A DNA stretch of 42,229 bases from Bdellovibrio sp. ZAP7 (GCA_945878405.1 CAMCTJ010000016.1:1-42229); one strand, 5' to 3'; positions 37,042 through 42,008 are shown, counted from the first letter of the stretch. Made by a program: numbers and translations. The notes: generated from the sequence alone by a model not told the origin.

Positions 37042-38478
37042 ATGCCCTGGAATATTGAAACCTCTTATCTCCAATTACCTGAGGAGTTCTACCACAAACA
37101 GACAGCCTCCAAGTTTCCAGCCCCACAAAGAGTGTTAACCAATGAACCGCTAGCTGAGATGCTGGGTCTCAACTCTAAGGATTTAGATAATTCTGTTCTT
37201 TGCGGTGTAGTAAAAGCATCTGGCTCGGAACCGTTTGCACAAGCCTATGCTGGACATCAGTATGGCCACTTTACGTTCTTGGGAGATGGGCGCGCTCTCG
37301 TCTTAGGAGAACAAGTAACACCACAAGGCGAACGGTTTGATATTCAACTCAAAGGCTCTGGAAGAACTCCTTTTTCACGAATGGGCGACGGGAAAGCGGC
37401 TCTCGGACCAATGCTGAGAGAGTATCTGATGAGCGAAGCCATGCACTATTTGGGTATTCCAACCACCCGCAGTCTTGCAGTGCTAACCACTGGAGAGCCC
37501 GTTTTTAGAGAAACGGTCTTACCAGGTGCTATTTTGGTACGAGTAGCGAGCAGCCACATCAGGGTGGGCACTTTTGAATTTGCAGCTCGCCTGAATGACA
37601 TAAGCAAACTGAGATCTCTTGCCAACTACACTATCAAAAGACATTTCCCTGACATTCAGGGCTCAGATAATTCCTATTTAGAGCTCATTCGTCTCGTATC
37701 ACAGCGCCAGGCAAAGCTCATTGCGAGTTGGCTATTAGTTGGATTTGTTCATGGGGTAATGAATACTGACAATGTAAGCATCTGTGGAGAGACAATTGAT
37801 TATGGTCCTTGTGCTTTCATCAATTCCTACGATCCTTCCGCTGTTTTTAGCTCAATTGATCGACACGGCCGCTATGCTTTCTCAAATCAACCGTCTATTG
37901 GTTTGTGGAACCTAGCTCGGTTTGCGGAAACTCTTCTTCCTTTAATCGATTCAGATCTGGGAAAAGCAAAGGAAAAAGCCGAAGGTGCCCTGAATATCTT
38001 TGCTACCGCATTCCAAGATACGTGGCGCACAGGGATGGGGTTAAAGCTAGGATTCTCTAGAGTAGATGCTATGGAGCTAAAACTGATGGAGCGTTTTCTG
38101 ACACTGTTGGAGCTTCATCGTGCTGACTTTAATAATACTTTCCGAGAACTATCTCTAACGGACGCCTTTCAATCCGATTTTTTTAGAAAGACCGATGTTG
38201 TGGAATGGCGGCGTGATTGGCTCACGGTTCAATCGCAAAACACCTTATCCATTGAGGATAATCACAAGCTCATGCAGAGTAAAAACCCCGCAATTATTCC
38301 TAGAAATCATCTTGTCGAGGAAGCGCTTCAAGAGGCCCAACTGGGTAATTTCACTCTCTTCCATCGATTATTGAAGGCAGTGAGAACTCCCTTTCAGATA
38401 GACCCTGAAGATTTGGATCTTGGGTTCCCCCCTACAAAAGAACAAGAAGAGGGATATCAAACCTTTTGTGGCACTTAA
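37042..38478 (+). CDS. selO: SelO protein adenylyltransferase (YdiU family)
   Basis: This 478-residue pseudokinase-fold enzyme AMPylates proteins on Ser, Thr or Tyr during oxidative stress. It matches the family along its length: the AQAYAGHQYGHF N-terminal motif, FDIQLKGSGRTPFSRMGDGKAALGP, PTTRSLAVL, GVMNTDNVSICGETIDYGPCAF (metal and catalytic residues) and SNQPSIGLWNLARFAE. It ends YQTFCGT, with a Cys three residues from the end in the region where eukaryotic SELENOO has selenocysteine. It starts 4 bases after the regulator and converges on the transglutaminase-like gene across 37 bases with only a weak hairpin. Confidence 0.95.
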   Translation: MPWNIETSYLQLPEEFYHKQTASKFPAPQRVLTNEPLAEMLGLNSKDLDNSVLCGVVKASGSEPFAQAYAGHQYGHFTFLGDGRALVLGEQVTPQGERFDIQLKGSGRTPFSRMGDGKAALGPMLREYLMSEAMHYLGIPTTRSLAVLTTGEPVFRETVLPGAILVRVASSHIRVGTFEFAARLNDISKLRSLANYTIKRHFPDIQGSDNSYLELIRLVSQRQAKLIASWLLVGFVHGVMNTDNVSICGETIDYGPCAFINSYDPSAVFSSIDRHGRYAFSNQPSIGLWNLARFAETLLPLIDSDLGKAKEKAEGALNIFATAFQDTWRTGMGLKLGFSRVDAMELKLMERFLTLLELHRADFNNTFRELSLTDAFQSDFFRKTDVVEWRRDWLTVQSQNTLSIEDNHKLMQSKNPAIIPRNHLVEEALQEAQLGNFTLFHRLLKAVRTPFQIDPEDLDLGFPPTKEQEEGYQTFCGT

Positions 38479-38515: not shown

Positions 38516-39217
38516 TTAGCGCCCGATAATACCAAGTGGCTTTGCCAACTGGACCGCATTAAAATGCACATCGGGCTTAAACCTCCGTTCATATTCTTCG
38601 GGATCTATTAACATATTGTTCATTGGATCAGCCATTTTCTTAATTTCAGGAAGATACAACCAAACGTGTTCGCCACGGCCTTCGTCACTCTCAATAGTTC
38701 CCGTAATTAAGTTAGCCTGAATACCGAGTCGATTGAGAATCGCTTTCATCACTAGAGCTTTGTGCCGACACACATCAGCTTGAAGAGGCTCCTCATTAAA
38801 ATACTGAGAAGCCATGAGTGGCTTTAGGTAAGGAGCCACTTCTAGATTGTCGTTAATATTTTTGGCAAGGTAATCAATCAGAATTTCAGAAATCATCAGA
38901 ACATTCTTTTTTGGTTTCATAAACTCTGCTCGTTCCGCTGGGGTTAGAAAACTGAGTATATTCTCGTAGTCCAAATAGATAGACAGTCCAATATGGGGAG
39001 TCTTGTTTACATAGCCCGCAAGTTCACTTCCCGCAGTTAATCCAGCTGCAAGGCCTCCAACGATGAAAGTCCCTTTTACGACAGAAAAGCTGAGTCTCTT
39101 GAAGGCCATCACGCAAGCCGATTGCTTAGAGCGATCTTTTTCATATGCAAATGCGGGTTGAGATAAACTCCACATTAATCCATTCAGACAAAGAATAATG
39201 AAAGCCCTTTTAATCAT
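38516..39217 (-). CDS. Exported transglutaminase/EDR1-like cysteine enzyme
   Basis: This 233-residue protein has a signal peptide (about 1-24, ending PAFAYE), a Gly-rich hydrophobic segment (about 50-70) and a C-terminal domain with the transglutaminase-like triad: Cys150 (DVCRHKALVMKAIL), His184 (GEHVWLYL) and Asp197 (MADPMNN). These spacings suit the transglutaminase/papain-like fold, and CRHKALVM is close to the EDR1-type motif. It could be a periplasmic protease or protein cross-linker; no substrate is indicated. It overlaps the 5'-adjacent caspase-like gene by 8 bases, so the two exported proteins are translationally coupled. Confidence 0.75.
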   Translation of the reverse strand: MIKRAFIILCLNGLMWSLSQPAFAYEKDRSKQSACVMAFKRLSFSVVKGTFIVGGLAAGLTAGSELAGYVNKTPHIGLSIYLDYENILSFLTPAERAEFMKPKKNVLMISEILIDYLAKNINDNLEVAPYLKPLMASQYFNEEPLQADVCRHKALVMKAILNRLGIQANLITGTIESDEGRGEHVWLYLPEIKKMADPMNNMLIDPEEYERRFKPDVHFNAVQLAKPLGIIGR

Positions 39218-40070
39218 GGGGAATCAGTTCTCCCTCATGATTCCAAATTAATCTTGGCAAGGGTAAAGTCTGAAGAGATGCTGGTTCCAAATTCTTCCCG
39301 ATGTAGGGCAGGGGCTCCGTTTTACACCATCCATCGCGACAATGCTTGCCCCAATCCTGAACATTTTCTGCCCCAAGAGCCGAATAGACCGTCCGCTCAA
39401 GTATGTTGGACATGAGTTGCTGGGCTTCATGCTTGGAGGGGTAATAAAGTTTCCTTCCTTTGAGATTATGGATGGGAAAGTAATCTTCAACGCTTCCAGC
39501 ACCGCAGGAAGAAAACACGACGGGGGCATGCTTCCACGAAATCTCTTGAATACATCCCACGACTTTTTTGAAAAGCTCTTCATTTTGGGGAAACTGCTTC
39601 CACTTTCCCTGTTCAACCTTAAAACCAAACACTTCACCCAAACCAACTGAAAAGCCCTCAGCGTGCCCCGCAATCTCAATCACGGAACAAGAACCAGGCC
39701 CTAACTCTTTTTTGATGGACTCGCACGCCCTTAAAAAATGCTCGGTATTTTTGTCTGCTTTCACTTCTGACGTACTGATTACCTTAACCCTGGAGGAGTC
39801 TTGCCAGCCTTCTCCCTCAACCGAACTTTCCCCTTGAAAAAGACACTTTTGAGGGTGACTAAGAATGGTTCGATTGAACATTATTTCTTCGGGGGTAGAT
39901 TTGCCTGAAAGTCCCGGAATATGAACAGGTGCGGTGGGCTTATCCGAGTGATAGCCAACACTCGTTTCATGAAGCATTTGTTCTTTAAAGCGTTTTTGAA
40001 GTTGGTGAAAGTCGGCACAAAAAGCTGTGGAACCAAGAGCTAAAAAAAAACCGATTATAATCTGGTGCAT
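39210..40070 (-). CDS. Exported protein with caspase-like (clan CD) His/Cys motifs
   Basis: This 286-residue protein has a signal peptide (IIIGFFLALGSTAFCAD) and two motifs that together recall clan CD peptidases. A hydrophobic strand is followed by GHAEG (H136, in IEIAGHAEG), and 53 residues later another strand is followed by SSCGAG (C189, in VVFSSCGAG). In caspases, legumains and CHAT proteins the same positions hold the catalytic His and Cys. Other cysteines (for example GKHCRDGWC near the end) might form disulfides. The ATG at 40070 starts the signal peptide; in-frame upstream sequence has none. The fold is an inference and needs structural checking. It overlaps the transglutaminase-like gene by 8 bases. 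Confidence 0.6.
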   Translation of the reverse strand: MHQIIIGFFLALGSTAFCADFHQLQKRFKEQMLHETSVGYHSDKPTAPVHIPGLSGKSTPEEIMFNRTILSHPQKCLFQGESSVEGEGWQDSSRVKVISTSEVKADKNTEHFLRACESIKKELGPGSCSVIEIAGHAEGFSVGLGEVFGFKVEQGKWKQFPQNEELFKKVVGCIQEISWKHAPVVFSSCGAGSVEDYFPIHNLKGRKLYYPSKHEAQQLMSNILERTVYSALGAENVQDWGKHCRDGWCKTEPLPYIGKNLEPASLQTLPLPRLIWNHEGELIPHD

Positions 40071-40151
40071 TCCCCTTTCTAATGCAAACCAGAGACCGAC
40101 CGAGGCAGGGCTATTCTTTTTGAATACAGATAGCTTAGACAAAAAGGTAGG

Positions 40152-41060
40152 CTAGGCCGCCTTAAACCAACTGATTGTCGAAGTCGAAAACTCTTTCATA
40201 AAAGTCTTTGGCTTTTCAGAGAATACCTCTTTTCCCAAAAGCCGTGCATTTTTTCTTAACGCTTTCTTCTTTTCCTTTATCAGCGACGAGATGAGCTCGA
40301 GAGCTTTTTTGTTTTTTATCACTTTGCGGTTTTCATCGAGTTGCTCTTGAATCATGATCAAATCTTGAAACTCTCCCAGCACATCTGAAAGTTCATGAAG
40401 GCTACGATTCCATTTTTTTGTATCAGGGCTTAGACCTTCCAAAAAGAAATCAAGCTCAACTCGCAAGAACTTTACTGCTTTTCTCCACTCAATGAACATT
40501 TCCTCTTCATCTGTTTCCTGGCAGTAGTCGCTGAGGTCTAAGCATTCGTGGTAAATAGAGCGCAGGCTTTCGTCTATCGATTCCCAAATATCTCGCTTTA
40601 CTTTTATCTCGGGAATCCGCTCCATGGCTGCTTGCAAAAGTCCAATGGCTTCTCTTAGTTTCTTTTCTTGTTTAAAGACTTTTTCTACAGTCCGTTTGCT
40701 CTCCTCCACAAGAAACTGTTTGATCTCATGAACCTCTTCAATCTTAAACGACTTCTGATGGGTATTGAGCAGCTTTTGAAATACTTCCTCAGTAACATGA
40801 GCATCTCTGACATCTCGAAAAGTTCGAGATAGGGATCTTAAACTTTTTTCTTCTTTTGCAAACTTTTCATCTGAAATCGATCCTCGTAGTAAAAAGAGAA
40901 CAGCTCGCGCCTTTTTTAAAGACTTTCTTGCCTGTTTGAATTGCTCTCGATGAAGCCCTTGACTAAGTGATAAGACACTTGCCGCATCTTTGATTCCCGA
41001 AACAAGGATGTTTTTTAGAGAAGTTTCAATCGGTTCAGTTTTTGTTATTTGGTAAGGCAT
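40152..41060 (-). CDS. CHAD-domain protein
   Basis: This 302-residue, almost wholly helical cytoplasmic protein has the conserved His/Lys/Arg pattern of CHAD domains. LHREQFKQARKSLKKARAVLFLLRG comes first (in two pieces here: LHREQFKQARKS and KKARAVLF), then SRTFRDVRDAHVTEEVF. A second repeat has WRKAVKFLRVELDFFL and LSDVLGEFQDLIM. CHAD proteins bind inorganic polyphosphate through these basic residues. No CYTH or TTM phosphatase domain is attached. The ATG at 41060 has GGAG 6 bases upstream and was preferred to the TTG at 41072. The ribosome site is within one arm of an 11-bp inverted repeat, so translation may be controlled by RNA folding. Confidence 0.85.
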   Translation of the reverse strand: MPYQITKTEPIETSLKNILVSGIKDAASVLSLSQGLHREQFKQARKSLKKARAVLFLLRGSISDEKFAKEEKSLRSLSRTFRDVRDAHVTEEVFQKLLNTHQKSFKIEEVHEIKQFLVEESKRTVEKVFKQEKKLREAIGLLQAAMERIPEIKVKRDIWESIDESLRSIYHECLDLSDYCQETDEEEMFIEWRKAVKFLRVELDFFLEGLSPDTKKWNRSLHELSDVLGEFQDLIMIQEQLDENRKVIKNKKALELISSLIKEKKKALRKNARLLGKEVFSEKPKTFMKEFSTSTISWFKAA

Positions 41061-41063
41061 TTT

Positions 41064-41118
41064 AAACTCCAAATTAAAATCAGAAAGGAAAGACTCTTAT
41101 TTTAACTATTTGGAGTTT
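41064..41118 (-). promoter_or_regulatory. Inverted repeat enclosing the CHAD ribosome-binding site
   Basis: AAACTCCAAAT (41064-41074 on the plus strand) and its exact complement ATTTGGAGTTT (41108-41118) are 33 bases apart. On the minus-strand message the 3' arm contains the GGAG ribosome site (complement of 41067-41070), 6 bases from the ATG, and the 5' arm contains the matching CUCC. Folding would mask the ribosome site, as in RNA thermometers or translational operators. Whether it forms in the cell is unknown. Confidence 0.5.
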
Positions 41119-41144
41119 TATATCTAGCTGGGTCTTGTCATTTC

Positions 41145-42008
41145 CTATTCTTTCAAAACCACTTGCTCAGCGCCCTTTTCAGAAATAAGTCGTTCAAAGT
41201 ACGCAACTATTCCGTCTCGACGCATCAGGATTTCAGAGATTTCTTTTTGAGAGACATAGTCTGTCACACTTTTAAAATGAACCGGACTCAAACCTTTTAA
41301 AGATTTTAAAGTTCTTTCTCGCACTACTTCTACAGGCTCTGAATTTCCAGGCGCCGGATAGCGACGCATGGTCACAAAGGTTCCTGGTCTGAGCGATGCG
41401 CCAAAGTCAATAAAAGCTGGCCGCTTCTCCCCGTCCACCCAGTGTTCTCCCAGGAGTAAATTTTTTGCATGTCCATCAGAATTATGAAGCAAAACACATA
41501 AGATTCTGTGATCGCTTTGAACTGCATCTTTTGAAATCCCACCCCATTGGGATTGTGGCGTTTCGAATAAAATCTGAGCTTTGGGTACCACGTAAATCAG
41601 TGGAGCCTCATGAATAAAATCATTCCCTACCTGTACTTTTCTCCGATAGACCGTAGGAGGAACATAATCCATTTCCAGTGCTCGGTTAAGTTCATACGCG
41701 ACTACTTCCATCGGAGCCCGGGCCCAACCCCCGCTATCTCCCCACTCTCGAGGCTTCATGATGGCCTGACGGGTGCGTCCCGTTTCTGGATTTTTTAGGG
41801 TTAACCACCAAAGGTCGTGCATGTTCCCGTTTAATCTTTTCTTTGAGGCTTCGACAATTTGCCCTTGATCCAGATCGCTCAGAATCACTCCGTGAGCTGC
41901 CGAAATTTGAGTAGGCGACAACTTTTTAAAAAGCGGAGCGCAATCCGCAAAACCTAATACCGGTAAAGCTAACAAAACCCCCAAAATGAGCCGCCCAAGG
42001 TACCCCAC
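41145..42008 (-). CDS. Exported HipA/PI3K-like protein kinase
   Basis: This 287-residue protein has a signal peptide (YLGRLILGVLLALPVLGFADC) and a compact kinase domain. AIMKP (K85) is the probable ATP-binding lysine and MEVVAYEL supplies the Glu (E101). The catalytic loop is HNSDGHAKN (D178, N183), and FIDFG holds the metal-binding Asp201. The N-DxH-x(2)-N and DFG pattern is that of HipA and phosphatidylinositol-kinase-like enzymes rather than Hanks kinases. Location in the periplasm or outside would be unusual because ATP is scarce there. The GTG at 42008 with GGAGGGG upstream is preferred to the TTG at 42062. The CHAD gene starts 84 bases downstream. Confidence 0.7.
   Translation of the reverse strand: MGYLGRLILGVLLALPVLGFADCAPLFKKLSPTQISAAHGVILSDLDQGQIVEASKKRLNGNMHDLWWLTLKNPETGRTRQAIMKPREWGDSGGWARAPMEVVAYELNRALEMDYVPPTVYRRKVQVGNDFIHEAPLIYVVPKAQILFETPQSQWGGISKDAVQSDHRILCVLLHNSDGHAKNLLLGEHWVDGEKRPAFIDFGASLRPGTFVTMRRYPAPGNSEPVEVVRERTLKSLKGLSPVHFKSVTDYVSQKEISEILMRRDGIVAYFERLISEKGAEQVVLKE

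What the first reader, a model, noticed from the sequence alone, without database searches (positions are those of the whole stretch)
38516..42008. Four-gene cluster: exported kinase, CHAD protein, caspase-like and transglutaminase-like proteins
Four genes on one strand, the last two overlapping by 8 bases, encode an exported HipA/PI3K-like kinase, a polyphosphate-type CHAD protein, and two exported proteins with cysteine-enzyme motifs. Three have signal peptides. I know of no characterised system with this content. Phosphorylation plus proteolysis or cross-linking outside the cytoplasm, in a host-exploiting lineage, would suggest an effector or envelope-remodelling set. The spacing (84, 81 and -8 bases) is compatible with one or two transcripts, but unity is not proved.
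Basis: partly seen in the sequence, partly recalled or inferred. Interest (0 to 1): 0.62.

Follow-up and report, generated by a model that had tools for sequence, protein, structure and literature searches.

The report
Exported kinase and cysteine-enzyme gene neighbours
The four neighbouring genes are real, but they look like three independent units rather than one system: an exported kinase related to animal Fam20 kinases, a polyphosphate-binding protein, and a tightly coupled pair of exported cysteine enzymes; only the kinase family and the pair are of real interest.

Summary
In detail: four minus-strand genes (41145-42008, 40152-41060, 39210-40070, 38516-39217), spaced 84, 81 and -8 bases, three with signal peptides. 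The one-system reading is mostly not supported. The complete order recurs in one genome only, a congener (LLD_190), although synonymous sites between the two are saturated.

(1) KIN belongs to an exported kinase family with strong matches in about 14 genomes of several Bdellovibrionota families; at the 14 loci examined outside this cluster no homologue of the other three lies beside it. Fold and profile are closest to Fam20 secretory-pathway kinases (Foldseek E 1.6e-8; profile E 1.8e-6). The catalytic K-E-D-N-D set is kept.

(2) CHAD sits with ppk and ppx in another genus, was found only where ppk occurs, and probably has its own promoter: a polyphosphate protein.

(3) CASP and TG are a true couplet: stop and start overlap or abut in three genomes of two genera, and the families co-occur. 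Both are restricted to two genera and have dispersed paralogues. TG keeps a Cys-His-Asp triad; CASP keeps a His-Cys dyad in a caspase-like layout, but its fold is unproved.

The HipA reading is not met. The Fam20-like exported kinase family is the best lead.

The parts
41145..42008 (-). KIN: exported Fam20/PI3K-like kinase, 287 aa, GTG start, signal peptide about 1-21; catalytic set K85, E101, D178, N183, D201
   Evidence: ORF and SD; AF2 pLDDT 81.5; Foldseek Fam20A E 1.6e-8, then Vps34; 15-member profile hits Fam20C/A/B at E 1.8e-6 to 6.5e-6; residue table
41120..41143 (-). Block AAATGACAAGACCCAGCTAGATAT upstream of CHAD, 19 of 24 bases shared with G012 where no KIN lies upstream; likely CHAD promoter region
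   Evidence: counted by eye; weak in LLD_190
41059..41123 (.). 16-nt inverted repeat (arms 41059-41074 and 41108-41123) across the CHAD start; not kept in relatives
40152..41060 (-). CHAD: CHAD-domain protein, 302 aa, no signal peptide, presumably cytoplasmic
   Evidence: PF05235 81.5 bits vs cut-off 25.6; homologues in a ppk-ppx locus in G012 and G013
39210..40070 (-). CASP: exported protein, 286 aa, invariant H136 and C189, four further invariant Cys; possible clan-CD (caspase-like) fold
   Evidence: alignments; low-confidence model, strands ending just before H136 and C189; distribution
38516..39217 (-). TG: exported transglutaminase-like protein, 233 aa, triad C150/H184/D197, second moderately hydrophobic segment about 42-60
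39210..39217 (-). 8-base overlap of CASP stop and TG start; the pair overlaps by 11 in LLD_190 and is spaced +1 in G012

Best explanation
The cluster is three independent functional units that lie side by side in one genus. Unit 1, KIN, is a separately acting exported kinase: Sec-exported (inferred from signal peptides), folding outside the cytoplasm into a Fam20/PI3K-like kinase and transferring phosphate from ATP to an extracytoplasmic protein or glycan, perhaps where prey or host cells supply the ATP (inferred, not shown). Unit 2, CHAD, binds polyphosphate in the cytoplasm and belongs by ancestry to the ppk-ppx locus. Unit 3, CASP-TG, is a translationally coupled pair of exported cysteine hydrolases: TG probably a protease, amidase or transglutaminase using Cys150-His184-Asp197, CASP probably a clan-CD-type protease using His136-Cys189. 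Coupling and co-occurrence suggest a shared substrate or a processing order (inferred). Linkage of the three units is most likely neighbourhood inheritance within the genus.
For: KIN: 20 of 369 phylum genomes match, about 14 strongly, in several families; none of the 11 loci with a KIN ORF carries CASP, TG or CHAD homologues, nor do the G002, G003 and G077 KIN loci. CHAD: ppk and ppx beside it in G012 and G013; present in 4 of 5 ppk-positive and 0 of 3 ppk-negative genomes tested; upstream block shared with genomes that lack KIN there. CASP-TG: stop/start at -8, -11 and +1 in three genomes; co-occurrence in family f1 Fisher p 0.003, p 0.018 with the genus collapsed. Gene order within the genus is conserved over about ten genes at an unrelated locus, so the order shared with LLD_190 is weak evidence of function.
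Against: The four-gene order is kept in LLD_190 at saturated synonymous divergence. CHAD is adjacent to a CASP-TG copy in a second genus too. In G009 the TG homologue overlaps by 11 bases an exported Hanks-like kinase, so a kinase beside TG occurs twice with unrelated kinases. MAG fragmentation hides flanks (the LLD_190 contig is 3218 bases; the window contig ends 221 bases upstream of KIN).
Confidence: 0.72

Rival explanations
1. A genuine four-gene extracytoplasmic modification module of this genus: KIN phosphorylates a target, CASP and TG cleave or cross-link it, CHAD links it to polyphosphate state.
For: Order kept in LLD_190 despite saturated synonymous sites; three of four products exported; CHAD next to CASP-TG in G012 as well.
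Against: KIN and CHAD have independent distributions and contexts; LLD_281 has KIN without CHAD and with CASP and TG on other contigs; no significant co-occurrence of KIN or CHAD with CASP or TG; CHAD likely has its own promoter.
Confidence: 0.12
2. An extracytoplasmic 'kinase plus TG-like' pairing in which the kinase is exchangeable: Fam20-like here, a Hanks-like lipoprotein kinase in G009; CHAD is a bystander.
For: The G009 TG stop overlaps the start of an exported kinase with lipobox LVGC, HGD and DLD motifs; KIN lies two genes upstream of the CASP-TG couplet here and in LLD_190.
Against: Only two cases; the other TG homologues (G000 C23, G001 C71, G002 C87, G012) have no kinase identified beside them.
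Confidence: 0.1
3. A horizontally moved island or defence cluster.
For: In G012 a decayed CASP-TG copy lies near a HEPN/nucleotidyltransferase pair and a phage integrase; an intact CASP in G012 lies beside a transposase.
Against: No PADLOC match, no match in plasmid records or viral contigs; signal peptides argue against a cytoplasmic defence role.
Confidence: 0.06

Closest known systems
Fam20 secretory-pathway kinases (Fam20C/A/B; PF06702)
   Same: Exported; best fold match (Fam20A 5wrr, E 1.6e-8, TM 0.55 by query length) and best profile matches (Fam20C 1.8e-6, Fam20A, Fam20B); shared signature around the C-helix, 'MEyvAYeLNRlLgmdyVPPtayR' vs 'AEIAAFHLDRiLdFrrVPP', and an 'NxDrH' loop.
   Different: Bacterial, about 290 aa; Asn183 where Fam20C has Glu in DRHHYE, DFG-type motif rather than DNG; Pfam Fam20C only E 0.0024 at best (6 of 15 members); 13% identity in the fold match.
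PI3/PI4 kinases (PF00454) and HipA (PF07804)
   Same: Same broad kinase superfamily; PF00454 up to E 6e-8 in one family member; catalytic N-x-D-x-H-x-x-N and DFG.
   Different: The window member itself has no PF00454 or HipA_C match at a useful E-value; no HipB-type partner seen.
CHAD-domain polyphosphate-binding proteins (PF05235; PMC6537752)
   Same: Full CHAD match; many invariant basic residues; ppk-ppx neighbours in a related genus.
   Different: No CYTH domain; here displaced from ppk-ppx.
Transglutaminase-like cysteine enzymes (PF01841, PF13471)
   Same: Cys-His-Asp triad in canonical order; hhalign with PF01841 homologues aligns Cys with Cys and His with His.
   Different: Below the Pfam cut-off; lineage-specific N-terminal half.
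Clan CD cysteine proteases (caspase-like, PF00656)
   Same: His then Cys, each after a predicted strand, 53 residues apart; a distant fused homologue reads GHSGG and SSCFSGG.
   Different: No Pfam match; low-confidence model; Foldseek not significant.

Membership tests
Fam20 kinases | Secretory signal, acts outside the cytoplasm | tested here: met
   Signal-peptide-like N-terminus in the window protein and its homologues; actual location not tested
Fam20 kinases | Protein-kinase-like fold closest to Fam20 | tested here: met
   Foldseek rank 1 Fam20A E 1.6e-8; profile top 5 hits all Fam20
Fam20 kinases | Lys-Glu pair and catalytic Asp residues | tested here: met
   K85, E101, D178, D201 kept in nearly all 15 members
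Fam20 kinases | Fam20 DRHHYE Glu and DNG motif | tested here: not met
   Asn183 and DFG instead
Fam20 kinases | Pfam PF06702 match above cut-off | tested here: not met
   No hit for the window protein; best member 0.0024
HipA kinases | HipA_C domain and adjacent HipB-type partner | tested here: not met
   HipA_C E 0.29 over 16 residues; downstream neighbour is CHAD; upstream lies past the contig end
CHAD proteins | PF05235 above cut-off | tested here: met
   81.5 bits vs 25.6
CHAD proteins | Polyphosphate binding | not testable with these tools
   ppk-ppx neighbours in G012 and G013 are indirect support
Transglutaminase-like superfamily | Cys-His-Asp triad | tested here: met
   C150, H184, D197 invariant in 7
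Transglutaminase-like superfamily | PF01841 above cut-off | tested here: not met
   16.2 bits vs 23; the whole genome has no PF01841 match at E <= 0.001
Clan CD / caspase-like | His-Cys dyad at strand ends | tested here: met
   H136, C189 invariant in 7; predicted strands 131-135 and 184-188, in a low-confidence model
Clan CD / caspase-like | Caspase-like fold or C14 profile match | tested here: inconclusive
   pLDDT 44, Foldseek caspase-4 rank 2 at E 0.033; hhalign vs C14 probability 0.6% though His and Cys align
Four-gene system | Repeated linkage in distant genomes | tested here: not met
   Complete order only in one congener

The most novel reading that the evidence does not exclude
Bdellovibrionota use a previously undescribed family of Sec-exported Fam20-like kinases, in this genus coupled with an exported CASP-TG cysteine-enzyme pair, to modify envelope, prey or host molecules outside their own cytoplasm; the kinase slot beside TG is filled by an unrelated exported Hanks-like kinase in a sister genus.
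Probability: 0.13. Interest if true: 0.72.

Novelty: new variant of a known kind. Interest (0 to 1): 0.42.

Why it matters
The papers read treat Fam20 as an animal secretory-pathway family (PMC5865150, PMC7948968) or as a eukaryotic/Metazoa-specific cluster (PMC9758233). A conserved, catalytically intact, exported bacterial family with Fam20 as its nearest fold would bear on where extracellular kinases came from. It also raises a concrete question: what are the ATP source and substrate of a kinase exported by Gram-negative bacteria related to predators? The CASP-TG couplet offers a small, testable pair of new exported cysteine enzymes. The four-gene system itself is probably not there.

Tried and rejected
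HipA toxin: no HipA_C match of use and no HipB partner. Defence system: no PADLOC match. Plasmid or viral origin: no match. Structured RNA in the cluster: none. SelO (37042-38478) as a fifth member: absent from 8 of 9 relatives tested. Regulation by the 16-nt inverted repeat at the CHAD start: not kept in relatives. Promoter and terminator scans: no more than chance. CASP by profile against PDB: chance hits only. The single genome-contig scan found only four KIN loci because its peptide patterns were narrow; the profile search found many more, so rarity outside the phylum is not established.

Full report
Observation. They run on the minus strand: KIN 42008-41145, CHAD 41060-40152, CASP 40070-39210, TG 39217-38516. 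Gaps are 84, 81 and -8. KIN, CASP and TG and their homologues start with a hydrophobic export-type segment and CHAD does not. The contig ends at 42229, so the region upstream of KIN is unknown.

Relatives. Searches of 114 related genomes with each protein and fetched neighbourhoods show the complete order in one other genome only, G001. Its 3218-base contig holds TG, CASP, CHAD and the C-terminal 133 residues of KIN. Third codon positions match at 36-47%, first and second at 71-83%, so all four proteins are constrained and the order has outlived synonymous saturation. That is weaker than it sounds: at an unrelated locus G000, G001 and G002 share up to about ten genes in order, so order is generally stable in this genus. 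In the third congener, G002 (LLD_281), KIN lies alone on C203. Its CASP and TG are on C81 and C87 and look orthologous to dispersed paralogues of the window genome (C6 and C23); CHAD is missing.

KIN. The AlphaFold2 model from five sequences is good (pLDDT 81.5, pTM 0.80). Foldseek against the PDB gives Fam20A first (E 1.6e-8, probability 1.00), then PI3-kinase Vps34. A profile of five members finds 20 of 369 phylum genomes, about 14 of them strongly (own genome included), spread over several families. Almost all are single exported proteins and some are domains of larger exported proteins. Of the 12 loci fetched, 11 showed a KIN ORF and none had a CASP, TG or CHAD homologue. A 15-member profile finds Fam20C, Fam20A and Fam20B chains at E 1.8e-6 to 6.5e-6 and PI4K only at E 0.17. 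Pfam Fam20C matches 6 of 15 members at best 0.0024, and PF00454 matches 5 at best 6e-8. K85, E101, N176, D178, H180, N183 and D201 are kept in nearly all 15 members. So this is an exported, probably active, Fam20/PI3K-like kinase family. It is not a formal Fam20 member: Asn183 and DFG replace the Fam20 Glu and DNG. It is not a HipA system. Its substrate and ATP source are unknown.

CHAD. The Pfam match is clear. In G012 and G013 the CHAD gene (69% identical to the window's) lies in a locus with polyphosphate kinase and Ppx/GppA. Among eight genomes tested, CHAD is present in four of five with ppk and in none of three without. Published work shows CHAD domains to be polyphosphate-binding modules (PMC6537752). 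A block about 60-84 bases upstream of CHAD is shared (19 of 24) with G012, where no KIN precedes it, so CHAD probably starts its own transcript here too. CHAD is best read as a polyphosphate gene that sits in this neighbourhood.

CASP and TG. These form a real couplet: the CASP stop and TG start overlap by 8 (window) and 11 (LLD_190) and are +1 apart in G012, where CASP is a decayed pseudogene missing the stretch with the catalytic Cys. Both families are confined to two genera of one family among 369 phylum genomes (the extra TG hits elsewhere are weak and partial). They co-occur (Fisher p 0.003; 0.018 with the genus collapsed), whereas KIN and CHAD show no significant signal with them. TG has an invariant Cys150-His184-Asp197 triad, weak PF01841 scores and an hhalign match to PF01841 homologues that pairs Cys with Cys and His with His (E 0.002, probability 14%). 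CASP has invariant His136 and Cys189, predicted strands ending directly before each, and a distant homologue fused to a 1001-residue exported protein in G009 that reads GHSGG and SSCFSGG. Fold and profile tests do not reach significance, so clan CD membership stays a motif-level inference.

A loose end. In G009 the TG homologue overlaps by 11 bases a protein-kinase-domain gene (PF00069 E 4e-13) with a lipobox-like export signal and HGD and DLD motifs. An exported kinase next to TG thus occurs twice with unrelated kinases. Two cases are too few, but this is the strongest remaining reason not to close the system idea.

Verdict. What remains is a Fam20-like exported kinase family in Bdellovibrionota (phylum inferred from the named relative SZAS-1) and a lineage-specific coupled pair of exported cysteine enzymes.

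Noticed in passing
L144:3047-5098: One 683-residue exported protein appears to fuse a NadD-like nucleotidyltransferase (GTFDPVHEGH) and a DGHHRI segment with the KIN kinase domain (motifs read by eye).
   Followed up: no
L044:3293-5303: In G009 the TG homologue overlaps by 11 bases an exported lipoprotein-like Hanks-type kinase.
   Followed up: partly
L043:2866-5871: 1001-residue exported protein with the CASP domain at its C-terminus; no Pfam match in the rest.
   Followed up: partly
L031:6203-9917: G012: TG with a decayed CASP beside CHAD, then a HEPN/nucleotidyltransferase pair and a phage integrase.
   Followed up: partly
window:37042-38478: SelO (PF02696 E 1e-112) convergent with TG and preceded by a MarR-like gene; SelO found in only one of nine relatives tested (G013, 55%).
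   Followed up: partly
window:41059-41123: 16-nt inverted repeat whose arm covers the CHAD ribosome-binding site; not conserved.
   Followed up: yes
L039:4948-7349: The TG paralogue of the window genome lies downstream of a conserved 375-residue protein without Pfam match and a deaminase; the order is kept in three genomes of the genus.
   Followed up: no
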